Source: Apostichopus japonicus
Taxonomy: Eukaryota; Echinodermata; Holothuroidea; Aspidochirotida; Stichopodidae
DNA: 64,000 nt
NCBI RefSeq assembly: GCF_037975245.1
Contig: NC_092566.1
Coordinates: 16,775,001 to 16,839,000, forward strand
Direction: 5' to 3'
A program made the translations under genes and the position numbers. Below the pieces are notes generated by a model. It was not told the origin of the DNA, made no database searches, and was given only the letters and a program-made list of their open reading frames with translations. Numbering within the stretch: the first letter of the stretch is position 1; each line of letters starts with the position of its first letter. This document shows, one piece after another, positions 4,001 through 28,745 of this stretch.

Positions 4001-7000
4001 AAAGGAAACGCTCGCTATTTCTGTGATATCACCAAATGAACACCAAGTTTACGATATCCGAGTTTCACCTACACCCCCCCCCCCCACCACCACAACCCAA
4101 ACCGGCTAGACAAGCTGCAATAAGTAAATCATACAGTACCTTGTCAATTATTCTGCAACTATTACATGTGCTTAACATATTTTCTTCGTTCCCGTCCAAT
4201 GTTAGGGCACCATGAGGTATGCAATGCTTTGCTATTTTTTTTCTGCAATACGATAGTAATAGACTACTTAACACATTGCAGCTGAACTTTTTTTTCTGCA
4301 ATACGATAGTCAATGGACTACTTAACACATTCAAACAGCTGAACTTCGGCTGTCGTTTAATGGAGTTTTGGTATTTTTCGAGACAAAGGGGAAAACAGAG
4401 ATAGGAGATTCAAGGAGTAGAAAGGGACTATTATATCTATAGTTTCCGTTGGAAACGTTTACAGTTATTGTATTTTTTAATGTTATTTCCTGTTTATTAT
4501 GTTATATATAGACAGTGTCTTTACCGTACTACAAAAAAAAAAAAAATTATAATATGGTGACGGGTCTTTTATTTTCTTCACCAAAATGTTTTCTTTCCAT
4601 ACCTCATATTTGGTGCAATTTTCTTAATTTTGTAAAGTTCATTCTCGTCGTCAAAAACCGTCATCTCAACCCCAACTGCGGCGGCGTATTTTAGATGTGA
4701 TGTCTGCTTATGGGGTTGAGCGTACACTATCCTTGAAGGTTGAACGTTCAGGTTTAGTATTGTCTGAATTTCGTGCTGTAGGATGAAGACATGATCTTTG
4801 TTAAGAGAAGTCACACAACATAGAGAATAAGTATAAGTAAACCCAGCCGAGAAGCCAAGGGGGGGGGGCGACCGCCCCCCCCCTTGAGCATATTTTTTAA
4901 ATTGATTATTTATATCGTTAGAAATTTCAAAATAATAAAAGGTGAGATGCAACTTACAAGGCCTGGGAAGTGCCATTTCCAGCGATCTTGGAGGCAATTT
5001 CTGCCAAAATTTTATTATATGCTTCGCGCCAACTCATGGTGGCGCTACGCTTAGTTAGTTTCGCCCCTCCCTTGGCAAATAATCACTACGCTCCTGCGTA
5101 AACCAAACAACTTGATCCAACAGCTCCCCTTACACCGATATTTTAACGTATAGGCTACCCTGCGAGTTATGACGGTGTTACATTTGAGATATCACAATTA
5201 AGTCTCTTCGTTCTTTCGATCTGGTGAAGTCGATACCATGCACACATTAGCTGGGTGGTGAGCTCTCAATACTGTTTGCTGTGTAGAGGAAAACAGGGGT
5301 GTATGCAGCCAAGGCGAGGGTGTGGCGCTGTGATCATTGAAGTCGATTCCACCCCCTATGCCCCCCTCCCCACAGGCACGGAAATGGTGCATTCTGCGGC
5401 ATATTTAGGCTATAACTTAGGTCAATATATAATAAGGTCTACAAGCAAGGTACGTTATATGCTAGTAACAGAAACTACTTTGAAAGTTAACTTTGTGATT
5501 AAAAGGAGGGGTGGGGGGGGGTGGGTGGAGTAGGCTACGTGTACCCGGCCTCATCCTCACCACTGGATTTTTACCTGGAACACTGTAGGTAATACTATAG
5601 GCATACACATGATCTAGACAAAATGCGTAGAAGCTAAGAAGACAAAATACTGCTTCCGTTCTTATAGACACATGGCAGGCGCGGCGGAACGGGAAAATTA
5701 TTGGGGGGCTAATGTGTGGAGACTATCTAAGCGGAGCGCCATCATCGGTTGGCGCGGAGCGTACAAGAAAATTTGGGGGTTTTCAAACCCCCAGATGGCC
5801 GGAAACGGCACTTCCCGAGTGTTTTATGCTGCGAATACCTAGCCATAAAATATGGGTCTCAAGCCTGCAATTTCTCAGATTGCACGTAAAAGTCTGTAAA
5901 AAGATTTTAATTTGTATATTCGATGGTGTTTTAAGAGAGTAGCTATTACTCGTAGTGTACTCGTAAAGACGTTTTTGAGTGTAGTAAGGGCAGTGGCGGA
6001 GCTAGGGGTATTGGTCAGGGGGGCAAGAATGGTCTGTAGGTGCGCTTTCGACACTATCTAAGCGGAGCGCCACCACAGGTTGGCGCGGAGCGTACAGAAA
6101 ATTTTGGGGTAAAGATACTCCCTAGATTGCAGGAAATGACCCTTTCCGGGCCTTACTAATTTGCAGATAAACGGAGAATAAATAGGTGTCGTCGCCATTT
6201 TGTCGGAAATTTACACCAACAAAATATGACAAATGTCAATAGGTATATGAGAGAGCAATAAAATAGTAAATAATCGCGAATAAGTAAAAAGTAGTGAAAA
6301 GCTGAAAAGGGCGCCAGCAGTCCATTTGAGACCGTCAGGGGGGGGGGCATCCGCCCCCTGACTGTATATATGGACGCTCCGCCACTAAGTAAGGTGGTGT
6401 TGGAGAACTGGCTGAAATGAGGCAAGTCATTGGCCTAAGACGAAGTTGTGTTACGCTTATCGGTACTCACACTCACTGCTTCCACTTTTCACGGGGCGTG
6501 AAGACGCGGTCGGGGTGACAATGTGGTCTATAGCCAGGGGACGGGCCGAGGGTCCCCCAGCAATTACTAAAATTATTACACCTATATAGTATACGTGTGC
6601 ATCGGACAGATCGACAAGTATGCATTGAAAAATGTGCAGATGCACGTTTCGGAGCCTTGGTAAATATTGGGGGGGGGGCTTATCATGCATTTGCCCCCTC
6701 AACTTTTTCATTGGGGGGGGGGGGCTGAGCCCTCCAAGCCCCCCCGGTTCCGCCGCCACTGACACATGGAGTTTGAAAATGTTGAACACATTAATGAAAT
6801 TTCCAGACCAAAATGTAGTTTTGGATTCATCGTTTTCAGTAAAATTTCGCTTATTTTATAACAACCGAAATGTGCCATCTATTAATACCGGGATAACGAC
6901 GGGACCTGCCGTCGTTTAAAAATGGAAAACTTGGTCATATAGCCTAGGCCTATAGGCTATTCGTAAAGTTTCTGAATCTGCTAAAATCATTATGATCATT

Positions 7001-8528
7001 GTATTTTGATAGTATCATGTGCACGTCTATCCAAGGGCGGCGGAAGCACTTTTAATCTGAGGAGGGGGGGCACCGACATCAAAGGGCACTTTGCAGAAAT
7101 TCGATTGGACTGATGCAGCCTTATATTTAGTACCCTTTATAACTTGTATTATCTCATTTGCGTATATCACTCCATCAACGCCCCCCCCCCCCCCCAAGGA
7201 AAATATGCATACTAGCACTGCAATATCCAATGTGCAAATTGGGAAACAAGGAACAAGTTTTGTTTTGAGACAAAATGAGGTGAAATCATGCTAGTTGCTA
7301 ATGTAGGAATCTTCCGAATTAGAGTTTATTTCTTGTCAATATCTTAACAAATTTTTTCCATTCGAAATAGCTTTGAGTGGTGACCCACAGAACTTCATTA
7401 AAAGTCAGGGGCGTAGCCAGGATTTGCAAAGTTGTATGCACGACTATCTGAGCGGAGCGCCACCATCAGTTGGCGCGGAGCGTACAAGAAAATTTTGGTT
7501 TTACAAACCCCTCAGATGGCTGGAAACGGCCCTTCCCGAGTGTTCATTCTGGTTGTCTGGCCTCTTGCTAACTTGAGACACCTAAATTTTTATGTAGAAA
7601 AAGGGCACATTTTTAACCTGAGGAAAAGTAGGGGGGCACGTGCCCCCTGTGCCCCCCCGGTTCCGCCGCCCTTGCGTCTATCTGTTTATAGTAATTTTGC
7701 TGAGTCATGAGAACGCAATAAAGAACATTATCTAGCCTTCTTGCATAGGCCTACTATGCAAACACATAATGTTGTGACAAGATATTGTTGAACAGGCTGT
7801 TCAACTTACCAAGCTAGCACAATCGAAACCAAAGTTCATTTTGGCAAATATTTGAAGAAGTACAGGATCTGGGTTTGCCTTGACTGCATAGTACGGATAG
7901 ACTTTAGGTAACAGCCGTTTCCATTGATCCACCATTTTGACTTGATATCCCATGTCCATCACGTAAAAAGCATCGTCGGAATTCTGCGATTAAAGACAGG
8001 AAATAAAATTAACAGAGTAAGTTACGAAAGGTTTTGATTTTTTCTTCTTTGTTTACTTAATAAAGCTCAGAACCATGAACTGCATTAGGCTCATGTAATT
8101 CAACCAGCCTTATCAAAGTTTATTCCATACTGAGGTATTCCAAAGCCCACTGAGTGTGGATTTAATGGACTGAGTTAAAAAATATCATTCGGGATTCAAC
8201 GGCCCCAGGAACACTTTCCCTCTTTTATATAGGCCTAGTTCTTGATTTGCCTTTTGTTGCTTCCATAAAGGTTCATGTAGGCCTATACCTAAATCAGTTG
8301 GCAGAATTTGGAAAGTGAAACATTTTACTCAACGATGTTTGAACATTCAGCCCCCCCCCCCCCACCTTTAAAATCCTGTGAAATTTAGTATCTAGCCTAT
8401 ACCGGTTAGTTCCCTGGCATGACCATGATATAGTCGCTTACCTGGTACAGAGATCTTTCGGTTATCATTCTTCGTATGACATCAATAACCTCCTCTGTAT
8501 CTTGACAAACAGTAATAGAATTCTCCAT
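1081..8528 (-). CDS. Ornithine decarboxylase-family protein (ODC paralogue, possibly antizyme-inhibitor-like)
   Basis: Fold type III PLP decarboxylase family; ODC makes putrescine from ornithine in the cytosol. Eight exons (minus strand, in order): 8442-8528, 7810-7983, 4603-4775, 3836-3976, 3309-3492, 2714-2974, 1565-1700, 1081-1172, giving about 415 residues (human ODC is 461). All junctions are GT/AG and phases close. Visible landmarks: YAVK with the Schiff-base Lys64; GFDCAS; a conserved antizyme-binding-like segment after residue 107; SFHVGS (His194); DIGGGFP (235-237); AEPG (Glu277); INDG (Asp320); WGQSC (Cys361); GSY (Tyr390); FNGF. Oddities: the position matching human Arg277 is Leu280, the one matching Asp361 is Ala362, and no Arg aligns with Arg154. 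These residues bind PLP phosphate or substrate in ODC, so the protein may be inactive, altered in substrate, or antizyme-inhibitor-like. The C-terminal degradation tail of vertebrate ODC is absent. Confidence 0.88.
1776..1850 (+). repeat. SINE central-domain fragment
   Basis: The stretch matches the central domain of the fuller SINE at 37846-38050: the block TGTCCTTGGGCAAGG, then a TTTATCTCCATTGCCTCTCT-type block, then a GTGTATAAA block. Head and tail are missing. It lies in the intron between ODC-like exons 6 and 7. Confidence 0.65.
2152..2430 (+). mobile_element. hAT-like MITE, family B
   Basis: Inverted ends CAGGGGCGTAGC and GCTACGCGCCTG (11 of 12 pair). The interior holds the family stem-loop block (GCGCCA, about 8 nt, TTGGC), a GATCGCTGG block and a terminal C run. 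The possible 8-bp flanks (2144-2151 and 2431-2438) match at only 5 of 8, so this copy is old. It sits in ODC-like intron 6. Confidence 0.75.
4844..5096 (-). mobile_element. hAT-like MITE, family B, reverse orientation
   Basis: Reverse-complement copy of the 2152-2430 element, carrying the same stem-loop and GATCGCTGG blocks. The 8-bp flanks AGTAAACC (4836-4843) and CGTAAACC (5097-5104) match at 7 of 8. It lies in ODC-like intron 2, close to the acceptor of exon 3. Confidence 0.78.
5676..5890 (+). mobile_element. hAT-like MITE, family C, fragment
   Basis: The left end CAGGCGCGGCGGAAC is followed by the block ACTATCTAAGCGGAGCGCCA and the inverted TTGGCGCGGAGCGTAC arm shared with other family members. 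No matching right end was found, so the copy is truncated or its right part is eroded. In ODC-like intron 2. Confidence 0.6.
5991..6387 (+). mobile_element. hAT-like MITE, family D, with 8-bp TSD
   Basis: The ends CAGTGGCGGAGC and GCTCCGCCACTA form a terminal inverted repeat. The flanks AGTAAGGG (5983-5990) and AGTAAGGT (6388-6395) match at 7 of 8. The interior has the shared stem-loop block near 6055-6095 and a G-run/C-run hairpin near the right end. Closely similar to 9814-10198. Confidence 0.82.
6660..6763 (-). mobile_element. Right-end fragment of a hAT-like MITE
   Basis: G runs are followed by CCCCCCCGGTTCCGCCGCCACTG, a terminus of the same type as the 7032-7674 element. I could not locate a partner left end. 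Confidence 0.45.
7032..7674. mobile_element. Composite hAT-like element with perfect TSD and an inner MITE start
   Basis: The ends CAAGGGCGGCGGAA and TTCCGCCGCCCTTG are a perfect 14-bp inverted repeat. CGTCTATC occurs exactly at 7024-7031 and 7675-7682. Inside, a second left terminus CAGGGGCGTAGCCAGG begins at 7406, followed by the family stem-loop block at 7441-7485. This suggests one related element landed in another. In ODC-like intron 2. Confidence 0.8.
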
Positions 8529-9127: not shown

Positions 9128-9813
9128 CAGGCGCGTATCCAGAATTTTCAAACCCGGGGGGCGCGAATTACTATCTAAGAGGAGCGCCACCATCGGTTGG
9201 CGCGCAGCGTACAAGAAAATTTCTTATTTTGATACCCCCCAGATCACCGGAAACGGCACTTCTCGGGCTTGAAATGACCAACCAGATGTACACTTTTTGC
9301 CTGAGAACCAAGTATTTCCTAATAGTTTTTTTTCATTCATAACCTTTTTGAAGATTGTCAACCCGGCACACATCATGTTCGACCTGATCGCATCTCCTGT
9401 GGGTCTTTGCTTTTGTAGGTGATTCTACGTCGCGGCCCACAATACCCGTCAGCCCCACTTTTCAAGGTTTTAAGCCCCATATTTGTTCAGAATTTGAAAA
9501 TTCACATTTCTCGTGAATAAACTCACTTGAAAACATACCCATAATGTTGTACAAAATTTCATCTATGGACAACCAATATAGAAAAACTTCCTTGAACCCC
9601 TAACAGACCGGTCAAAATTGCACGAGTAGAGGGAAGTGTGATGCAGAATGTTGGTCAGATATTTTCTAAAATTCAGACACAGTTAATTTATTGGTGTAGA
9701 AATATTAAAACCTCTTATAACGGCTATTATAAAACTTGGTTGAAGGATATGAAAAAATAGCAGATATTTCCTTCAAACGAACACTATACACATAGGCGTA
9801 GGAGGCGCGGCGG

Positions 9814-14064: not shown

Positions 14065-17000
14065 TCAATTTAAGAGCACTTTTCCTTCTAGAACTATTTT
14101 TGCTGTTCCTGATAAATCAACTCGTCCGTCATCTCTCATCTTGATCTCCAGATTCCCACCTCGTGCTGAGCATTGTCGAGCTGTAATTATGAACGTAAAA
14201 CGCAAAAAAAAATAGAAATAAATAAATAAATATAAAGGGGGTTGTAGGATAAAAACCGACAATACAACATATTCTTGAATAAATTTGACAACACCTACTA
14301 AATAGTGGTATTAATTATGAAATGAAAACTTTTCAATTTTGCAATTAATATATGATCAAAAATTCAAAAGAAGTCTGTCAATTCAGTGTAACATGAAAGT
14401 AATTTAAGCAATGTTTACTGGTAATGGCGAGAAGTACCGTGCCATAACTGTATGATTCTAGTTTGCAGGACCACACAGTCAGAGTGACTATAAATAAATG
14501 CATAAGAAACTTAAACTAATCAGAATCAAAAAAGTCTTAAACGTTCTGTATGCTAGTAAGATATCATGCCTCATCTGTTTCCATGTACAACTCACAGCTT
14601 CCCAAGTTTCAAACTGCCGACTATTAAATGACATTTGATAAACATGATGTCACTTAAAAATAATAAATAAAAGGCAAAAGACAGTCTTTCACATTTTCAG
14701 TTATACAATTTTTCATAATTATTTTTTTTTGTTGTGTGCAAATTACCACAATTGTCGCTAAAATGTTAGCATTTAATAATAGTGGGCTGAAGCAGCAATT
14801 CCTGTGTATTGAGGAATTGCATGCCAGAGATACTTTGGAAACATTTTCTATCAATGTTCATGATAGTTTGTAACACTATCGTTAGGATATTCCAGACACT
14901 TTCACAAACATTACCACAATATGTATGACTACATGCATGATTACCGAGGTGATTAGTACAAGAGAATTTTTTGTACAGCTTAAGGAAAGCATCCAAATGT
15001 CACAATAATTGATATTTATTTGATATTAATATTCAATGTGCATGCCACAATTTGGTCCATAAATGGCTTTGTCAAAATAGATTTCGGTTTATTCACTGCC
15101 GAAGATGTTACTTCAAAGAATACATCGTTGATGGAATATCGGTTTATTTTTTCTATAAATAAAATCTGCTAGAGTGTTAAACAGTTACCATCCTTTACTC
15201 ACCATACATTTCCTTCTTTCCTAAAACGTTAGACCAGTAAGGTGACAATACTGTGTGTGCTGCACCTATATATCACACAGAAAAAAGAAAATGTTATAAT
15301 TTGGGGGTACGGCAGAAATCTAGCAACATGTCATTGTGCAGATGCATAAAAATGAATGCAACACTTTATCAGCAAACTTAGTGGAGCTACTCTATGTAAT
15401 TGCAGTAAAAAGCTCAGAAGAAATGAAACAAGAAAAAATTAATTTCAAGAAGAGAAAAAATTGTATTGTCATGGTTATTTGACAATATATAAATGTCGTT
15501 TTGAAGACATATTTTTTTTTAAGTTATTTTACGTAATATTACCTTTTCATACTATCTTGTTTGCTATAAACTCTTATTGTGCTTTTAAAACCTCCTATTG
15601 TTTTTTGTTTTTTTAAATAACCACGTATTGTATTTTAATAACCTCTTATTGTTTATAACTTTTTTGTGTTGGTATTTAAGGATTATTTTATTAGGTTATC
15701 ATTTGATTTCACTGTATTTATCTCCTTTTTATAGGTTTTTGTGAAGCGCTTTGATACTTTTTAGGCTTTTATTTGCCTAGGTGTGTAAATTAAAGAACCC
15801 CTATCATACAACTACCACAACAACAATCTCTTTTACTACCCGTTGCAATATTAGACCACGAAGACAGTTCCGGAATGTGAACTACTTTAATAAAAAAGCG
15901 AAGAATTGGAATCCCTTGTGATTTGTCAGCTGAGCAGATCACATGTTTAAGAAAGCACAAAGGCCCACAAAAGAACATTTACGACAATGTCACCGAAACT
16001 CTACAGGTATAAGGCAAATGATTTAAGTAGTCAACAAAGTCACGAACTAAAGTCCTGTATGACTTAACACTATTTGCAATTACACTCAGCTGGTTTAAGA
16101 TATGGCCCTAATTGTTTGCAAAATAGTATGGTCTTCCACTTGAATGTCATAAACTTAAAGGCATGATTATTCAAACTTCAACATGTGTATACTTAAAGGG
16201 TGTGAAGACTCACGCACAAAGAAATGTCACATGCCGGTAATCTGACCTAGTTTTGAATAATGAGGTGTAACAGAAGTGTTAGACACCACCATCGATCCCA
16301 GAAAGTACACACACAGCTTGCTACCGTCGGTAATTGGAACACTAGTGTACAGTCAGTACATACAGCTGCGATCAATACCCACAGCACAGTGCACAAACGA
16401 TACAGCGATGGACATCTCAGGTCCAGCTAAAGATAACAAGGTATCACGTTTCATTACTGTCTGCATTTTGTAGTGACACAAAAAAAAATTTACTTGCAAG
16501 CAACCGAAAGTTAACTTTTTCAGATGGCGGCACGCGGTTTGGGCGAGTCTTCAATGCCTTTAATGAGACTTGTATAATACCTGTGACTGGATCTTCATCG
16601 ATACCATTCCATGGAGCAAAGTATCTAGAGATGAAATCGTAAACTCGGCCATCTTCATCGACTGCTCCATTCTCTTGGCTTCCTCTCAGAGTGATGATCA
16701 CACCCATGACCTCACCTGTCTTGTAAGCAGCCATCATCGCTGCTGGATTAGGTGACATCTTCTCCAATTCCTCTCTGTCGAATTAGATTTGAAAAAACAA
16801 AAAACAAATGAAGTCTTGTTAATGAATGCTGCTCAGTTAAAATTCCAGCATATGTCTTAAAGGGAGTGAGACTCGCGCACAAAGAAACGTCTGATGCCGG
16901 TAATCTCACCTAGTTTCAATGAGGTGTAACAGAAGTGTTAGACACCACCATCGATACCAGAAAATACACACACAGCTTGCTACTGTCAGTAATTAGACAC

Positions 17001-18344
17001 TAGTGTACAGTCAATACATGCAGCAACAGTCAAAACCCACAACACAGTGTACATAGCAGAGATGGACATCTCAGTTCTACATAAAAGAAAACAAGGTATC
17101 ATGTTTCATTACTGTCTGCATTTTGTAGCGACAAGAAGAAAACTTCACTTGCAAGTAACGGAAAGTTAACTTTTTTTCAGAGGGCGGCACGCAGTTTGGG
17201 GCGAGTCTTCAATGCCTTTAAATATTACAATAGTGATTTTTGAAATTGACCTAAACTGTCATAAATCATAGCTTTCGAAATGAAAAGGGGAACAAAATGT
17301 GACTAGTATTCGGGCCCTGATACATATCTCTGAGACTTACAGATTGCAGAGGATGGACCCCAGAATCGACTCTTTCAAACCTGAAAATTGTTAAGTATCT
17401 CTGTTGTGACTTCCAGGCTGTTGTCACACCTTTTACGAAGTTTCAAAATTTGCACTCAGCAAATGAGTTAGGCATAATCATTCCTGAATCAGTGAAATTA
17501 ATTTCAGTCATTGACAACATGATTTAGTAAATAATTCCTTTGAGATCTGTTCTGAATTACCCAAAAGCTTCACTTCATACATGAAATTCTATATCCTATA
17601 TATTTATACCTTTAGAAATGAAAATTGTTCACAAACAGATGCAAAATATTTTCCACAAGTTTCTTCAGTAATCAGATCAAGTCACCAAAAGATGATCACT
17701 TTAACAGGATCTGATTGTAAAGTGCAAACCATGAGAAAATATGGAAATGGAAAATGTGACAAGTCCTCCATTTATGGTTTTCCAGTGGAAGAGCAATGAG
17801 AAAATCATTGTCTCTTATTAATCTTTAAAATCTAAAATCGTAACCATCAAACAATGCAATGATTTAGCCATATCAAATAAGGCCATGTATGAGTTCTTCT
17901 TAAAAATACATGTGCATGAGAAAGCTATGTTTATAATATGATCCAACCCTCCAAAATAAAGGGTACCTTGTACACGAATCTGGTACTCGGAGAAGAAGCT
18001 CCTTGTTTGCACCGGGTGTGTACTGTACATCAAAGGGTGAGGCAGAGTCCAGAGTAATCTGATCAGTAACAGAGAGAAAAAAGTACAGGGTTACATAAAT
18101 ATTCTTCAAAGAAGTATGAGGAGGTACCTGTGGACGGACGGGTGCAAGAGGACGACCAGTTTTCTTGTCGAAAGTGAATATAACGTTTCTGCCAGCTTGG
18201 AATGATAATCTCCTAGTGTTATCTGAAAAAAACACAATTTTTATTTTTTTAATTTATTTCCAGTATAAATATAAATATTTTTATAAACAGTACATCAAAG
18301 GTGAGTACGTAAAGAGAAAATATTATTTTAAAATGTAAGTGTAC

Positions 18345-18376
<32 letters not shown>

Positions 18377-21300
18377 TACAAAACGTACAAGTGCAGCTGT
18401 CTACAATAAATTATCCCAGATTACCATTTTGTAAATAAATAGCAGCACGAAAAATAAAGCTATTTCTATACACATTAATTCTGAATTTTGGTGTTATTGC
18501 TTTGTTTCAATACACAGCAATTCATTTTGAACACAGTATGAGAGATGCCAAATTAAGGTTTGCCATTAGCCTAAAAAAGGTTTGCAAATTCTGAACAATG
18601 AAAATCTCTCCACTTGGCAATGTTAGAAGAACCTCTAATATAGCCAACATACACAGGAACAGTAAATATAGATTTTGCACAAATTGGAGCTTACATGAAT
18701 GTAACTTGGAAACAAACACACACTGCACAATGTGTACGACAGGCAGATGGAATGTTTTCCACAAATGATCATATTTCCTTAACATGCAAATATTTACACA
18801 TAAAAAAAAAATTGCAACTCACCTCAATTAATTTATCCACACCTTTGGGAACCTGCAAAAATGATAAAATATACAAAAAAAATGATAACGAAAGGATAAA
18901 ATAAGAGACAATAATGGTTCATAAAGTAACACTTTCCTCAATTGTAAATCACTGGTCTGTGATTGATGATTCTTCAGTTAAAACAAAATTCTACATATTG
19001 TAACTCTAAATTTTGAAATGTTGTCAATTTATTTTAATATAAAGTAAATATGAAGAAGCTGGTCCTATGATGTGATGAGAAAGAAGTTTCAATTTTCAAG
19101 TGCTAGTTAAGATCCAATTCCAAAGATCTGAGATCCCCAAAATATTATGCTGGAAACAATATTGTTTTATGTTTTAGGTCAAGAAACAGCCTTCAAACTA
19201 AGGTCTAAACTGAAGCAATTTTGTTGCAATGTGGATCGTCTAAATAAAGCTGTGTGATAATAAATTGATAAATATTTTTTATTGACCACAATGCAAACAC
19301 GGTCAATGATACTGTTGAGAATGTCAAAACCTGAAACTAGACAGCATAACAACTTTAGGATTATTTTCCTTAATTTACTACTCTCAATGTTCATGACCCA
19401 CCTTATCGCTGGGAGGATTCTGAGGTAAGGATATCGTGATTCGGTCTGCCGACCTTTTCGCAACAAGGTCACCACTCTTTGTCTTGAAAGTGAGTGCATC
19501 TGATTGATTTCCTGTGAAATAAATATTAATATACAGTAGTACAAAAGGAGGCAAAAAGGTAATCACATTAAAGTATTTTATTACATACTGCACCTGAGCT
19601 AAATTCCCTGTCCGAGTGATGACAGGTTACCTTCAATAACATTATTACGATTATATAAACTTGATAAGAGTAAAGAATGATTTTGTTGTTGTTTATCATT
19701 TAATAATTACATAATGATATATCAGGCCTTCTTCTGTTGGTTTATATCGCCATTTCACAATAATTCAACATACTGTCTTCAAGTCTGAGGCTCAACAGGT
19801 GTCCTTTGTTACTTTCTTCCGTTATTTACAAAGAGGTAAATCTGGCTAGCTCTTAATATGCAATGCATAAGCTTCTGAGAACACAAATAATAACAAATAA
19901 ATATTAATAAATATGTAATTTATATAGCGCCCAATCACACAAAGTATCAAAGTGCTTCACAAAACAAAATAATAACCTTATAAAAATAATCCTAAAATAC
20001 CAACACAAAAAGAGTAGAAAACAATAAGAGGTTATTAAAATACAATAGGAGGTTATATAAAAACAAAACAATAGGAGGTTATAAAAGTACAATAAGAAGT
20101 TATAACAAACAAGATCATATTATTAAAGCAGTTTTCGTTCCACATAGAAGTCTAACATTAAGCAAAGTGTGTCGTATTAATATAGGTTATCACATATCAT
20201 AATTGTCTTTTATAAATTGGTTACAATATAGTAAACAACAGTTATATTTTCTGACAACTTACCTGAGCAGAAAAATAAAACAGCAGCTGAGGCGACTGTA
20301 GCATGCCCACAAAGTTTGACTTCATTCTTAGGGGTGAACCAACGCAACTCAAAATTGGAGGCTATTGAAGAAAATGATTGGCAAGTCTTATGGTGAAGAA
20401 AATAGTAGTACTGTACCCCATTACTGAAAATATTTATTGTTTAATAGTGAGTTTTGTAATAACGGAAGTTGACTTTACATGTCCTTGCATAGTAAAAGAA
20501 ATTTTTGAACACTCAATATCAGGCAGTACAGCTTACATACTGTACATGTACACATTTTAAACCAAAATTTTACATACCAAGATTTAGTACTTACATTTCT
20601 CAAAAGAATCACCAGGTTGCAATATTCTGACAAATGCAGTCTCAGACAAATTCATCTCCATTGCAAGTTTCTGCTTGGTGTCATCGCTGAGATCCTACAA
20701 GAAAGTACCAAAATAATATAAAACTGTTAGCAAACTGCTTATCCACTAGAGAGCCTGTGTAATAGAATGTATAAAAGTAAGTTGGCCTGACCCCTAGCAG
20801 GATCTTCTTCAAAGGCTAAATGACAAGTAACAGTAACAGAAGGGACAAAAACACGCACAGAATACAGACAGGTTAACGAGCATGGTGAACACAAAGAGAT
20901 AGATGTAAGGGGATTAGTAGACAAGGGATGGAGAGAAGAAAGAAAGAAACAAGCAGGGGAAGAGGAGAGGTAGGAGATAAACAATGGAGGGACAAAGGGA
21001 GGATTAAGGAAAGGGGGTAGGGAAAGACAGGGGCACAGTGCCTACATAATATGACCCATGATTACAAGTATAAAACTGCTGAAGCTTGCAAATGCTCTAG
21101 CCTGTGGCCTAAGTCATGCCTTATTGATATAAATATGTTATTTGCATTATATGTTTGTGCAATTCTGATATTGCATTTTAAAAGGTCTCTATCGACCTTG
21201 TTGATTATTGAGTTCAGGTCTGTGTATCTTGTAACTTGGGAAATCCAGAAGGAATCTCAACTTTTTTAACCAAGTTACAAGTTACAATACCAAGTTGAAA

Positions 21301-22211
21301 CCCAAGTTACATACATTGTTATCCCTGCAAAACAAACATTGCCCTATTAAATGTACAAAACTGTTTGGCATTCCCTATCAGATGATCTTTAATCTATAAG
21401 CTCACTTACACTTTTCTAAAAACACTAAGACCCTTCTAAACATCTATTGATATCTGTATTATATTTTCATGGACCTGTTTCAGGCAAAAGTTTGAACATA
21501 TGTTGGCTGTGGTTGGAATTAGAGGTTTTGTGTGGGTTGGTGGGTTTTAGCTGAGTGTTATGGGTGTGGAAAGGTGGGAAAGTCGTGGCAGGGGTCGGGA
21601 GGTTTGTGTGGGGTCAGGGCTTTCATTTGTTCTCTTCTTTTTTGCTTGTTTCTTGTTTAGAGATATTTATGAATATTTTCATTGTTACGTATAGTGAGCC
21701 ATATTTGTTTTTTTAGTGCACTTCCTTTTGCAACTTTATATTTTTGTTACTAAATAGCCTTCTGTATACATGTACTTTGTAATCACTTGAATGGTGTGAT
21801 GAAATAAATTAATGAAATGAAGTTACTGTAGGCCTACTACACAATATGAAGTATCAAATTCAAAACGAAATATGCATTGTACCTATCTTTAGCATTTTTT
21901 CTTAATGATACTTTTACCTACAATTACAAAAATATGATAGAAACGTTCACGATTTAAACTAAGACTACAATTACAAAAGCATACGAAGCCCACAGAGTTA
22001 ACTCTAGGCTAGATATATGTACGTGATATGAATCTGGCCTAGGCCTAGGTGTGAATTGTGGGACTGCCATTTGGGGCCGAAATTATTTTTAATCTAAAAA
22101 TAAATATTTTACCCCATTTTGTATAAGACACACTGCTGCTGGATTTCCTGTAAACGGCTTACTAGCAAATGCATCAACAGTGAATATTGGCAAGCTTTTC
22201 TCGCTTGCCAT
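14065..22211 (-). CDS. PBLD: PBLD-like protein (PhzF family isomerase-like)
   Basis: PhzF/PBLD fold protein; the vertebrate homologue is phenazine-biosynthesis-like domain protein, whose substrate is not settled. Exons (minus strand): 22113-22211, 20595-20694, 20263-20361, 19402-19511, 18823-18852 (30 nt), then 6A 18128-18222 or 6B 17967-18058, 16581-16774, 15203-15265, 14065-14180. The product is 301 (6A) or 300 (6B) residues; human PBLD is 288. Visible motifs: PIFTVDAF at the N terminus, GNPAAVC (21-27), MNLSETAF with the conserved PhzF glutamate (Glu51), LRWFTP, LCGHATVASAAVLF (83-96), RYFAPWNG, DEDPVTGAAH, and a C-terminal GGNLEI/VVLEG-like end. All junctions are GT/AG with consistent phases. 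Exons 6A and 6B have identical phases and occupy the same slot in the alignment to human PBLD. Two TTAA MITEs flank exon 7. Confidence 0.9.
15580..15780 (+). repeat. Retroposon tail with tandem CCTATTG motifs
   Basis: Several repeats of an AACCTCNTATTGT motif lead into GGTATTTAAGGATTATTTTA and then GTGAAGCGCTTTGATACTTT. The reverse complement of 19905-20110 is the same family. It is probably a LINE or SINE 3' portion; both copies lie in PBLD introns, in opposite orientation. Confidence 0.6.
16193..16563 (+). mobile_element. TTAA-flanked MITE, copy 1
   Basis: About 371 bp including a TTAA at each end. The left terminus AAAGGGTGTGAAGACTC and the inverted right terminus AAAGGCATTGAAGACTC form an imperfect inverted repeat. 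TTAA target duplication is typical of piggyBac and some Kolobok elements, and no transposase is present. It ends 15 nt from the GT of the PBLD exon 7 donor (16579-16580). Confidence 0.85.
16857..17221 (+). mobile_element. TTAA-flanked MITE, copy 2
   Basis: Same family and orientation as 16193-16563, diverged by scattered substitutions, with TTAA at 16857-16860 and 17218-17221. It lies about 80 bp upstream (in gene sense) of PBLD exon 7, which is therefore sandwiched between two direct copies. Confidence 0.84.
17967..18058 (-). CDS. PBLD: PBLD alternative exon 6B
   Basis: 92 nt, acceptor AG at 18059-18060, donor GT at 17965-17966. It starts in phase 0 and leaves two bases, exactly like exon 6A. 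It encodes a peptide starting ITLDSASPFD and ending VPDSCTR. It replaces, rather than follows, exon 6A: including both would shift the frame and reach a stop in exon 7 (inference from the reading frames). Confidence 0.75.
18128..18222 (-). CDS. PBLD: PBLD alternative exon 6A
   Basis: 95 nt, acceptor AG at 18223-18224 behind a T-rich tract, donor GT at 18126-18127. It encodes a peptide starting ITLGDYHSKL and ending LLHPSVHR. Only 69 nt separate it from exon 6B. Either exon continues in frame from KLIE in exon 5 into EELEKM in exon 7. Confidence 0.75.
18340..18380. repeat. Poly(A) followed by (TA)n microsatellite
   Basis: About 17 A followed by roughly ten TA dinucleotides, in the PBLD intron upstream of exon 6A. 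Confidence 0.85.
19905..20110 (-). repeat. Retroposon tail, inverted partner of 15580-15780
   Basis: The reverse complement carries the AACCTCCTATTGT repeats, TTGTGTTGGTATTTTAGGAT and GTGAAGCACTTTGATACTTT. It ends in a GGGCGCTATATAAATTAC tail like that of the SINE at 13494-13800. Confidence 0.62.
21640..21830 (+). repeat. Possible LINE 3' tail
   Basis: T-rich sequence ending in GATGAAATAAATTAATGAAATG, resembling the 3' ends of CR1/L2-type retroposons. No coding part was seen next to it, so this is a weak call. Confidence 0.3.
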
Positions 22212-24836: not shown

Positions 24837-27800
24837 ATGACCGGTTTGAAGAGTACAGGTGTAGCAGTTGGTAAAGTTGTTTTAGTGGCAATTGGTGTGC
24901 TGTATGGTGTAGCAATTTTAATCAACTCCTTACATGGTTGGCCACAAAGTGACCCAGATCAGAGTAGATTTTGCAAGCAGTTAAGACCGTCAAGAGTTCT
25001 GAGTCTAAACTACACCCTGTGGGATCAGTGTTCCATGTTGAAATGGGTCCCCCTCTTTATCCGGGCAAAATGGCTTCATGATAATGCTGACCCTTCTTTA
25101 AAGGTGAGAATAAGATGAGTTTTACAGGCAAAATGTAATATTTATTAAAGAAGACAAAAGGAAGAGTGTTGTAATTTAATTTTAATGAATGCTGACCCTT
25201 AAAGGCATTGAAGACTTGCCCCAAACCCTGTGCGGCCATCTGTAAAAGTTAACTTTCTGTTGCTTGCAAGTAACGTTTTGTTCGTGTCGCTACAAAATGC
25301 AGACAGTAATGAAACGTGATACCTTAATTGTTATCTTTAGCTGGACCTGACATGTCCATCGTTGTATCGTTTGTAAACTGTGCTGTGGGTATGGACCGCA
25401 GCTGTATGTACTGACTGTACACTAGTGTCTAATTACCAACGGTAGCAAGCCGTGTGTGTATTTTCTGGGATCGAAGGTGGTGTTAAACACTTCTGTTACA
25501 CCTCTTCGGAACTAGGTCAAATTACCGGCATTAGACGTTTTTTTTGCGCGAGTCTTCACACCCTTTAACAGATTCAGATTTTAAATAGGACTTAACCAAA
25601 CAACATGAAATATATTTACTGTATATATATATATATTGCTACATTTTATACTGTACAAAGTTTAAACTTGAGAAATGTCACATAGTCACAAAACTCAAAT
25701 TAAAAGGTTGTAAAAGGCGCAGCTGAGTTGAATGGAACAAATTACATCTTTCAACAAATTTTAATGCAATGAAGAGTTGCTATGTTGGCTTTCATAAGAT
25801 GTGGAATTAGAATTAATTATTTATTTCTCTCATTCACATCTATTTACCCATGTATTACCCATGTAATATAATATTATTCTTCTGTTATTTTCCTGTAGAA
25901 TATTCCATTTGGAGAGAATGGCTTGACAATGGATATCTGGCTTCCTAAGAGCAAAGATCACCCACAGCAGATGCCTGTAGTGTTTTTCATCCATGGCGGT
26001 GGTTGGGGATCGGGTTCTAAGGAGATATATGCAAAGTTAGGTCAAGAACTAGCTAACAACCTAACATCCACTGTAGTAATTCCAGATTATCGTATATATC
26101 CCAAGGTAATTGGATTTTTTTTTTTTAAATTTTAACTGCAGTATCAGTAACTGTAAATGTCTGTTTTGGTTTGATATTGTCTGTGCATTCTGAGTACATG
26201 TAATTATTGCAGTACAGTTTTAATTTGTATTAAATTCACTTGATTTTTGTTAATGTTTTTTTTTTCAACTGTAGTATCAGTTACTGTAAATGTCTGTTAT
26301 GGTTTGATATTGTCTGTGCATTCTGAGCATATGTAATTATTGCACTACCGTTTTAATTTGAATTTAAATTCACTTCATGATTTTTGTTGTTGCTTTTTTT
26401 CAACTGTAGTATCAGTAACTGTAAATGTCTGTTTTGGTTTGATATTGTCTGTGCATTAATCTGAGTATATGTAATTATTGCACTACAATTTTAATTAGTA
26501 TTTAAATTCACTTGATTTTTGTTAATGCTTTTTTTCAACTGTAGTATCAGTAGTATATACTGTAAATGTCTGTTTTGGTTTGATGTTGTCTGTGATTTCT
26601 GAACTACTGCACTACAGTTTAAATATGTACCTATAAATACACTTGCTTTTTTTTCTTTTTTTTTCAGGGAACTATGCAAGATATGGTAACCGATATTTCT
26701 GATGCACTTCTTGAGTTTCGGAAGTTAAGCAATACCTCACACTTTTCTGGCGATACTAGTAAAGTAATTCTCATGGGACATTCTGCTGGGGCCCATCTTA
26801 GTGCCTTAGCAGCGATCCATCTTGCTGCTAAAGACTGTAATTCACCACAACAAGAACCTGTATTCTTGAAGAATAGTGACGGTAACGATCAAGATACAGA
26901 ACAAGACCAGATCAGATATCACAAATCAGGAGAGGAAAATATTGTCACTGATCCGAAAGGAAACGTTGACTCTGAAGAATGTGAGGGAGAAAAGTGCACG
27001 AGTAACACGGGGCATCATGCTCGAGAAACGGAAGAACACCTAGTCCCTAACTCCGAGCGAGAGGAAAATCCTGCCGAGACGATGGTTGACTTAGTTCTGT
27101 ATGTCAAGGGTGTCATTGGAATAAGTGGTGTGTACCACCTCATGGATTATTACCATCACGAGTCAACGAGAGGAATGGAAGACATCTCACTGATGTGGAG
27201 AGCGGCGGAGGGATTGCAGAACTTTGAGAAATATTCACCAGTTTCTATCGTTCCGAGTCTAAATGACAGTCAGATCAAAAGGTTTGTTCAATTTGATTTT
27301 GCATTTTAATAAATCTTATTTGGTAACATTTGCTTTTTAAGTTCAATATGTTAGGTACGTAGACATCCTGTGAAGGTGTTTTTTCTCAACCCATTAAAGG
27401 GTGTGAAGACTCGCGCAAAAAGAAACATCTAATGCCGGTAATCTGACTTAGTTTTGAATGAGGTGTAACAGAAGTGTTAGACACCACCATCGATCCCAGG
27501 AAATACACACACATCTTGCTACCGTCGGTAATTAAACACTAGTGTACAGTCAGTACATATAGCTGCGGTCAATACCCACAGCACAGTGTGCAAATGATAC
27601 AGCGATGGACATCTCAGGTCCAGCTAAAGATAACAAGGTATCATGTTTCATTTTGTAGCGACACGAACAAAACGTCACTAGTAAGCAACGGAAAGTTAAC
27701 TTTTTCAGATGGCCGCACGCGGTTTGGGCGAGTCTTCAATGCCTTTTAAGTTCATATCATAACATGCCAATAATATTTGAAGTATTTAAATGCACAGAAA

Positions 27801-28745
27801 AATGGTCACAAAAGTACTTATATCCAACTAATTTCAGCTTCAAATTAATTCGAAATTAATGGGCAGACAATTTTTTTGAGAAAATATTGCTCATGCTTGC
27901 ATTTGGAATTTTTTGGCCAATTTCTGGATATAGACACAACCTCTGCAATATCTTTAAGATTAATCATTGAAAATACAAGCCCGTAAAATGAAGCTATTTG
28001 AGAATCCAGACAATTATCATATTTTCTTTTTTGAGGTAGGGTCTAAAATCTTTTTCGTAAGGTCTAATTTTGATAGTACAGAAGACAAGAGTTGATTATC
28101 ATACAATGTTCAATGTTACAAGACCAGTAACTGATCTGAGTCAAGTGAGAAGTATTTATCAATTTGTCTGTCACTTGGCAAACTGTCATTGAACATATCT
28201 ATAAATCTTGTAATTCTGAAAAAGAGTTTGTGACGTACTTTAATAGTCAGCAAATTGATGGCAATAAAATTGAAGGAATTTGAATTACAATCGATATCTT
28301 TATCAAACATCACATATATCCAATGATAACATTGAAACTTGATATAATTCTACTGCTGTTTTGTGAGGTCATCACAGTGCAACAGATTGTATCCACTTAA
28401 AAATTAGCATTTTCTGCATGGTCCTTTGCAATTTCAACACTCCAAGCTGTTCAGGAATCAAGATTTCTGAATTGTCTGACATCTTTGCTTGGTTTTTACC
28501 CTAGAATCCCACCACACATGCTAATCCATGGTATGAAGGACACTATGGCACCCTTTTCATCTGCTTCCAAATTTGCGGAAACATTGTCAGGAGTAGGAGT
28601 ACCTGTCACCTTCAAACTGCTTCCCGAGGGTGGTCATTTAGACCTGGCCGTGGGTATGATGGAACCAGATCGAAAATGGTACAGTGAAATGATGAGTATG
28701 GTGATGGAAGGAGCAATGTCTTTCTTAAAGGATGGCAATACTTGA
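24837..28745 (+). CDS. Alpha/beta hydrolase, isoprenylcysteine methylesterase (ICME)-like
   Basis: Four coding exons: 24837-25103, 25899-26105, 26668-27281 and 28505-28745, 442 residues. The start is the first ATG after an AG acceptor at 24807-24808; an upstream 5' UTR exon is likely. Domain order: a hydrophobic segment at about residues 12-29 (likely membrane anchor), HGGGW oxyanion motif (121-125), GHSAGAH nucleophile elbow (Ser197), Asp375 in HGMKD, His407 in GGHLDL. This is a complete Ser-Asp-His set. The pattern resembles plant ICME and animal ICME-like or arylesterase proteins that cleave carboxyl esters; the actual substrate is unknown. Residues about 213-298 are an acidic, low-complexity insert not expected in the family. 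A poly(A) signal AATAAA lies at 28834-28839. Introns 1 and 3 each carry a TTAA MITE, and intron 2 a minisatellite. Confidence 0.87.
25199..25568 (-). mobile_element. TTAA-flanked MITE, copy 3
   Basis: Reverse-oriented member of the 16193-16563 family, with TTAA at 25199-25202 and 25565-25568. In intron 1 of the ICME-like gene. Confidence 0.85.
26120..26620 (+). repeat. Minisatellite, about 130-bp unit, four copies
   Basis: The block CAGTAACTGTAAATGTCTGT recurs near 26143, 26278 (diverged), 26411 and 26550. Each unit is led by a T run and CAACTGTAG or CAACTGCAG, which resembles a 3' splice site, and the units end in CACTTGATTTTTGTTAATG. It occupies intron 2 of the ICME-like gene, just before the true acceptor at 26666-26667. 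Confidence 0.88.
27394..27749 (+). mobile_element. TTAA-flanked MITE, copy 4
   Basis: Same family as 16193-16563, with TTAA at 27394-27397 and 27746-27749. In intron 3 of the ICME-like gene, about 110 bp after the exon 3 donor. Confidence 0.85.

What the first reader, a model, noticed from the sequence alone, without database searches (positions are those of the whole stretch)
17967..18222. Putative mutually exclusive exon pair in the PBLD-like gene
Exons 6A (95 nt) and 6B (92 nt) lie side by side with 69 nt between them. Both have their own AG and GT sites, both start in phase 0 and leave two bases, both begin Ile-Thr-Leu, and either fills the same gap when aligned to human PBLD. Joining both would shift the frame and hit a stop in exon 7. 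This points to alternative, mutually exclusive splicing that swaps a segment of about 30 residues in the middle of a PhzF-fold enzyme. I know of no such arrangement for PBLD, but I have not searched.
Basis: partly seen in the sequence, partly recalled or inferred. Interest (0 to 1): 0.8.

Follow-up and report, generated by a model that had tools for sequence, protein, structure and literature searches.

The report
Alternative exon pair in PBLD-like gene
A metabolic-enzyme gene, probably of a sea cucumber, carries two adjacent interchangeable exons that would each supply the same small hairpin of the protein, so the gene probably makes two versions of an enzyme of unknown function, an ordinary kind of splicing in an unexpected gene.

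Summary
On the minus strand lies a nine-exon PhzF-family (PBLD-like) gene. Exons 6A (18128-18222, 95 nt) and 6B (17967-18058, 92 nt) are 69 nt apart, both AG/GT-bounded, both phase 0 to 2. Either gives a full-length protein (301 or 300 aa); both together, or neither, shift the frame into stops in exon 7. Open decoy exons are common here, so homology must carry the claim. 6B matches exon 6 of a paralog (0 of 674 decoys score as well). 6A does not, but beats every control in TIGR00654 and Pfam (one decoy ties it in NF007625). The exons share no detectable direct similarity; both resemble the human segment, which I recalled. A modelled bacterial homologue places exon 6 at a beta-hairpin between two helices; the catalytic motifs lie in other exons. 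In the 69-nt intron an ordinary branch point falls within about 50 nt of the 6A donor, the geometry reported to keep OGDH exons 4a/4b apart. Best reading: mutually exclusive tandem exons, a new member of a known kind. No RNA or relative could be examined, so use of 6A is unproven; the paralog lacks 6A and codon usage does not favour its frame.

The parts
22113..22211 (-). exon 1, coding part from the start codon
   Evidence: own-genome search finds it exon by exon
20595..20694 (-). exon 2 (carries the LSETAF motif)
20263..20361 (-). exon 3 (carries the GHAT motif)
   Evidence: Pfam PF02567 hit over cut-off
19402..19511 (-). exon 4
18823..18852 (-). exon 5 (30 nt; the paralog has a 30-nt exon in the same place)
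18287..18305 (-). 19-nt intronic near-copy of part of 6B (18022-18041), 64 nt upstream of 6A; meaning unknown
18128..18222 (-). exon 6A, 95 nt, putative alternative exon
   Evidence: phases and sites; PhzF profile gain against controls
18059..18127 (-). 69-nt intervening intron; candidate branch adenines 32 and 37 nt from the 6A donor, then a T6 and CT-rich tract
17967..18058 (-). exon 6B, 92 nt, the exon shared with the paralog
16581..16774 (-). exon 7 (carries the EDPVTG motif)
   Evidence: Pfam hit
15203..15265 (-). exon 8
14065..14180 (-). exon 9 with stop codon

Best explanation
The gene is a PhzF-family (PBLD-like) gene with a tandem pair of homologous, interchangeable exons. Each encodes the same beta-hairpin in the middle of the protein. 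Splicing takes one or the other. Joint inclusion is hindered because the intron between them is only 69 nt, so an ordinary branch point for 6B sits within about 50 nt of the 6A donor. Joint inclusion at the annotated sites, or skipping of both, also shifts the frame and should be destroyed by nonsense-mediated decay. The two proteins share all three catalytic motifs and differ only in the hairpin, so the switch most likely tunes packing, assembly or access rather than chemistry. Shown: anatomy, phases, frame consequences, homology of 6B to the paralog exon, profile gain for 6A, hairpin position by homology. Inferred: use of both exons, exclusion mechanism, decay, functional effect.
For: Frames: E5-6A-7 and E5-6B-7 are open to the natural stop; both or neither gives stops in exon 7. 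6A homology, full isoforms: A scores above B in three curated models, Pfam PF02567 200.9 vs 194.5, TIGR00654 154.6 vs 143.5 and NF007625 106.9 vs 100.5. Fragment controls in TIGR00654: 6A 54.4 bits; deletion 44.9; 4 scrambles 41.6-44.4; 10 decoy exons from the window 41.0-49.8. Pfam fragment: 6A 75.5, 6 decoys 61.3-73.5. 6B homology: score 85 to paralog exon 6, reached by 0 of 674 decoys and 0 of 1000 shuffles. Against the human PBLD segment, which I recalled: 6A 31 (0 of 674 decoys, 6 of 1000 shuffles), 6B 35 (0 of 674, 1 of 1000). ITL start: shared with 6B by 0 of 778 decoys. Neutral-decay simulation (substitutions plus an assumed 0.12 indels per substitution): an unselected exon stays intact in 3% of 4000 runs at 0.2 and in 0 of 4000 at 0.5 substitutions per site. 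Intron geometry: candidate branch adenines 32 and 37 nt from the donor; the other introns of the gene model are 233 nt or longer. Structure: model of bacterial homologue L002, mean pLDDT 93.7, PhzF fold (best PDB match 1s7j, E 8.3e-30); the exon-6 equivalent, residues 137-158, covers strands 142-146 and 151-155 between helices 131-134 and 159-163.
Against: No RNA. No second species. 6A and 6B show no direct similarity (score 15, reached by 555 of 1000 shuffles and 295 of 674 decoys; 6A vs paralog exon 6 by 422 of 1000 and 217 of 674; DNA by 464 of 500). My own profile of 79 bacterial and archaeal homologues separates neither exon from decoys (full score: 86 of 674 reach isoform A, 148 of 674 isoform B; segment profile 145 and 162 of 674). 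One of 10 random decoys came within 4.6 bits of 6A in TIGR00654, within 2.0 in Pfam, and tied it (25.0) in NF007625. 6A has another open frame, continuous with 6B, with better codon usage (0.164 vs 0.010 bits per codon). The shared donor context is not rare (37 of 778 decoys are as close to the 6B donor). Paralog introns 5 and 6 have no 6A-like exon. The 50-nt steric limit is a mammalian figure; flies splice shorter introns (recalled).
Confidence: 0.68

Rival explanations
1. 6A is a chance pseudo-exon: an intronic segment with AG, an open frame and GT that happens to fit the profile; only 6B is spliced.
For: Decoys with matching phases are common, 19 in sense introns of this gene and 5 in introns 5-6; the paralog has no 6A; no direct 6A/6B similarity; own bacterial profile uninformative; codon usage of 6A is reached by 246 of 778 decoys; one decoy of 10 scored 49.8 in TIGR00654 and tied 6A in NF007625.
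Against: 6A outscored all 15 controls in TIGR00654 (1 deletion, 4 scrambles, 10 decoys) and all 6 decoys tried in Pfam; it matches the recalled human segment better than any of 674 decoys, shares ITL with 6B (0 of 778 decoys do), and lies next to 6B.
Confidence: 0.18
2. 6A was a real alternative exon and is now silent or nearly so (a recent relic).
For: No RNA is available, and an exon silenced recently would still look intact: 41% of simulated copies are intact at 0.05 substitutions per site.
Against: Both splice sites, phase and frame are intact; a long-dead copy would rarely be.
Confidence: 0.09
3. 6A is used in its other frame: spliced from exon 3 (phase 1), read as NTRRLSFQAG..., then joined in frame to 6B, replacing exons 4 and 5.
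For: That frame is open across 6A, the gap and 6B (117-aa open frame 17900-18253) and has the better codon score.
Against: It adds nothing to the PhzF profile: TIGR00654 134.6 with it and 134.6 without, Pfam 172.6 and 171.4; the 117-aa frame matches no Pfam or NCBIfam family, its peptide matches only itself in the genome and nothing convincing in the PDB. It would replace exons 4 and 5, whose equivalents in the L002 model hold several strands and a helix.
Confidence: 0.03
4. Assembly artefact: 6A misplaced from another locus.
For: None found.
Against: The own-genome search returns 6A once, within a locus whose exon order matches the paralog.
Confidence: 0.02

Closest known systems
OGDH exons 4a/4b, mutually exclusive exons of a metabolic enzyme (PMC7969005, abstract and passages seen)
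   Same: Adjacent alternative exons in an enzyme with a short intervening intron; branch points 25-41 nt from the upstream donor reported there, motif candidates at 32 and 37 nt here; a U-rich tract follows.
   Different: There the branch points were mapped and followed across vertebrates; here it is prediction in one genome, and branch points are only motif matches.
Human mutually exclusive exon clusters (PMC5740500, passages and section 7 seen)
   Same: Lengths not divisible by three (60% of clusters there), donor to branch point under 50 nt (9%), exon ends framed by secondary structure inside a folded domain.
   Different: Most of those exons were found by similarity to each other; 6A and 6B are not recognisably similar. 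A minority of 73 exons without similarity is reported there too.
PBLD (PhzF family)
   Same: Same Pfam family over the whole length; the three motifs in shared exons.
   Different: A mutually exclusive exon pair for PBLD did not appear in searches (listings only). Fish pbld1 is named among genes differentially spliced in a heatwave; the passages seen do not give its event type (PMC8933327).

Membership tests
Mutually exclusive tandem exons | Adjacent internal exons of similar length, same phases, GT-AG sites | tested here: met
Mutually exclusive tandem exons | Either exon alone keeps the reading frame, both or neither does not | tested here: met
   internal donors in 6A could on paper give in-frame joint forms
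Mutually exclusive tandem exons | Recognisable sequence similarity between the two exons | tested here: not met
   555 of 1000 shuffles score as well; kinship only through family profiles and the recalled human segment. So the firm claim is that it works like such a pair; membership by similarity is not shown
Mutually exclusive tandem exons | Both exons encode the same part of the fold | tested here: met
   6A by TIGR00654 and Pfam gain (one decoy ties it in NF007625), 6B by paralog exon 6; hairpin by homology. Moderate strength for 6A
Mutually exclusive tandem exons | Exclusive use in transcripts | not testable with these tools
   no RNA data available
Mutually exclusive tandem exons | Conservation of the pair in relatives | not testable with these tools
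   no other animal genome held; in the one paralog examined 6A is absent from introns 5 and 6
Mutually exclusive by steric interference | Donor to branch point under about 50 nt | tested here: inconclusive
   motif candidates at 32 and 37 nt; branch points not mapped, limit is mammalian
PhzF family (PF02567) | Full-length match over curated cut-off | tested here: met
   both isoforms, 200.9 and 194.5 bits against 27
PhzF family (PF02567) | Catalytic Glu, His and Asp motifs (role recalled from Pseudomonas PhzF) | tested here: met
   LSETAF, GHAT and EDPVTG lie in exons 2, 3 and 7; their Glu, His and Asp are invariant in 36 bacterial and archaeal homologues

The most novel reading that the evidence does not exclude
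An old exon pair, split before or around the divergence of the two PBLD-like genes of this genome and too diverged to recognise directly, lets one orphan PhzF-fold enzyme switch a whole beta-hairpin. The switch would be controlled by an OGDH-like short-intron device and perhaps by a 19-nt element shared between the intron before 6A and exon 6B, giving two enzymes with different assembly or substrate in different tissues or temperatures.
Probability: 0.2. Interest if true: 0.6.

Novelty: new member of a known kind. Interest (0 to 1): 0.4.

Why it matters
PBLD is an animal protein with medical interest (tumour suppression, inflammation and antiviral response, by titles and abstracts listed) and no assigned reaction that I know of. 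A natural switch that changes one hairpin and leaves the catalytic motifs alone would help show which part of the fold sets substrate or partners, and gives a ready pair of proteins to compare. The splicing arrangement itself is a known kind.

Tried and rejected
The alternative frame of 6A, continuous with 6B: no family match and no profile gain. A PDB hit to ribosomal protein L34 at E 1.1 was dismissed as chance: the three other hits, at E 0.58-0.75, are a cadherin and two OmpA-family chains, and the own genome gave only 6A itself.

A third exon X (17341-17380) with usable splice sites breaks the frame into exon 7 after either exon 6. Its likeness to the exon 7 start of the paralog is weak (94 of 2000 shuffles) and to its own exon 7 absent (1697 of 2000).

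A profile built from 79 bacterial and archaeal homologues (80 loci, L069 dropped for length) was meant as the main test of 6A and proved uninformative. In one search (711 decoys) the top decoys were pieces of the gene's own exons; decoys overlapping coding exons were removed before the counts, leaving 674. Searches count 778 decoys because they do not apply the stop filter to the split last codon.

Docking and selector RNA structures: of 18 inverted repeats in 16700-18900 many are A/T runs; with one species no conservation test was possible, so not pursued.

I did not model the two isoforms: structure prediction takes proteins that DNA gives letter for letter, which a spliced protein is not, so a bacterial homologue was modelled instead.

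Full report
What was checked. The region was read on the minus strand and a gene model built: nine coding exons, 22211 to 14065, with 6A and 6B as alternatives. Either choice gives an open protein (301 aa with 6A, 300 aa with 6B). Joining both, or neither, shifts the frame and runs into stops in exon 7.

What the gene is. Both isoforms match Pfam PF02567 over its whole length (200.9 bits with 6A, 194.5 with 6B, cut-off 27) and TIGR00654 (154.6 and 143.5). The own-genome search shows one other such gene, on the same contig (G000:C6, about 8.893-8.902 Mb). That paralog has the same layout, with exons of 30, 92, 194 and 63 nt in the same places; its protein is 53% identical to isoform B. The assembly (671,581,487 bases, 35 contigs) is close to the Apostichopus japonicus assembly of PMC10344927 (671,643,915 bases, 34 scaffolds; passages). 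The organism is inferred from this likeness alone.

Is it more than chance? Segments with an AG, an open frame in the right phase and a GT are frequent: 674 of 80-110 nt in the window outside the gene's exons, 19 of them in sense introns of this gene. So the anatomy alone is not evidence. Homology was tested exon by exon. 6B equals the paralog's exon 6 in length and aligns to it without gaps (score 85; 0 of 674 decoys, 0 of 1000 shuffles). 6A shows no similarity to 6B or to the paralog exon. But 6A fits the curated PhzF models better than 6B does. In a common fragment, TIGR00654 gives 54.4 bits with 6A, 43.6 with 6B, 44.9 with the segment deleted, 41.6-44.4 for 4 scrambles and 41.0-49.8 for 10 decoy exons from the window. 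Pfam gives 75.5, 69.1 and, for 6 of those decoys, 61.3-73.5, so one decoy lies above 6B. In NF007625, 6A (25.0) is tied by one decoy (25.0). By TIGR00654, 6B is not distinguishable from controls; its case rests on the paralog. Against a segment of human PBLD that I recalled, both exons beat all 674 decoys. The Ile-Thr-Leu start of 6B is shared by 0 of 778 decoys; its first nine bases are matched as well as by 6A in 8 of 778, and its donor context in 37 of 778.

Results against. A profile made from 79 bacterial and archaeal homologues separated neither exon from decoys (86 and 148 of 674 reach isoforms A and B; a segment-only profile, 145 and 162). Codon usage, trained on only 568 codons, gives 6A 0.010 bits per codon in its frame and 0.164 in another open frame that runs on into 6B; 246 of 778 decoys reach 6A and 164 reach 6B. 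The paralog's introns 5 and 6 contain four chance open segments, none resembling 6A by eye. GC of 6A (0.453) is exon-like: 68 of 1364 intron windows reach it, but so do 243 of 778 decoys.

How it would work. The 69-nt intron has motif candidates for the branch adenine 32 and 37 nt from the 6A donor, followed by a T6 and CT-rich tract. A branch point at least 18 nt from the acceptor (a usual spacing, recalled) must lie within 51 nt of the donor. A limit near 50 nt is proposed for simultaneous recognition, and OGDH exons 4a/4b are reported to be kept apart by branch points 25-41 nt from the donor (PMC7969005, abstract and passages). Of 629 human clusters 9% have under 50 nt and 60% have lengths not divisible by three (PMC5740500, passages and section 7). 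Both features occur here. Whether echinoderms obey the same limit is unknown. The other introns of the gene model are 233 nt or longer. Both donors are weak by a consensus score whose frequencies I recalled (6A 1.37, 6B -0.10; exons 3 and 5 score 8.52 and 7.49; exons 1 and 7 are also weak, 0.44 and 0.47) and share AG|GTACC. Competition between weak sites is thus plausible but not shown. What would choose between them is unknown. A 19-nt near-copy of part of 6B lies 64 nt upstream of 6A (score 28, 0 of 500 shuffles, the only striking one of seven comparisons). The intronic form has no other exact match in the genome, though 88 places match within two mismatches against 20 for the reversed control. 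It could be a shared binding site, a scrap of duplication, or chance.

What it would do to the protein. The model of bacterial homologue L002 (36-sequence alignment, mean pLDDT 93.7) has the PhzF fold (1s7j, 4dun, YddE, PhzF). By alignment and numbering, exon 6 corresponds to residues 137-158: two strands (142-146, 151-155) between a short helix (131-134) and the next (159-163). So each exon would supply one beta-hairpin. In 6A the strands would be near AETLYSL and KLVVLL, in 6B near DVQYT and ELLLRV (inference). The LSETAF, GHAT and EDPVTG motifs lie in exons 2, 3 and 7, shared by both isoforms; that these are catalytic is recalled. The distance of the hairpin from the active site or dimer face was not measured.

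Age. 6B is about as far from the paralog exon (16 of 31 identical, counted on the alignment) as the whole proteins are from each other (53%), which suits common descent. 6A is then either older than the paralog split and lost from the paralog, or younger and fast-evolving. A simulated unselected exon rarely survives intact at 0.2 substitutions per site (3% of 4000) and not at 0.5 (0 of 4000), so if 6A is a diverged duplicate it was under selection for most of its life.

In print. Searches (listings) showed no report of a mutually exclusive pair in PBLD; most subscription papers are not held. One fish study names pbld1 among genes differentially spliced during a heatwave; the passages seen do not give its event type (PMC8933327).

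Verdict. A probable mutually exclusive exon pair, new for this gene as far as searched, of a known kind.

Noticed in passing
18287-18305 and 18022-18041 (-): A 19-20 nt near-perfect direct repeat links the intron just upstream of 6A and the coding sequence of 6B; the intronic form has no other exact match in the genome. Possible regulatory element, fragment of a duplication, or chance.
   Followed up: partly
17341-17380 (-): A 40-nt segment in intron 6 with an AG acceptor and a gtaagt donor, out of frame with exon 7: a possible pseudo- or poison exon.
   Followed up: partly
16900-17220 and 16210-16560 (-), also L001 about 9480-9600: By eye, the same repeat-like element (GGCATTGAAGACTCGCCC...) sits in introns 6 and 7 and, inverted, just after the paralog gene.
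   Followed up: no
L001 about 6560-7740: By eye, intron 7 of the paralog holds a tandem-like array of degenerate units such as CTGTGTAGCTGAGTAATTACTATGCACT.
   Followed up: no
26623-27309 and 28401-28745 (+): Open frames that look by eye like exons of an alpha/beta-hydrolase gene (GHSAGAHLSALAA, HGMKDTMAPF); not searched.
   Followed up: no
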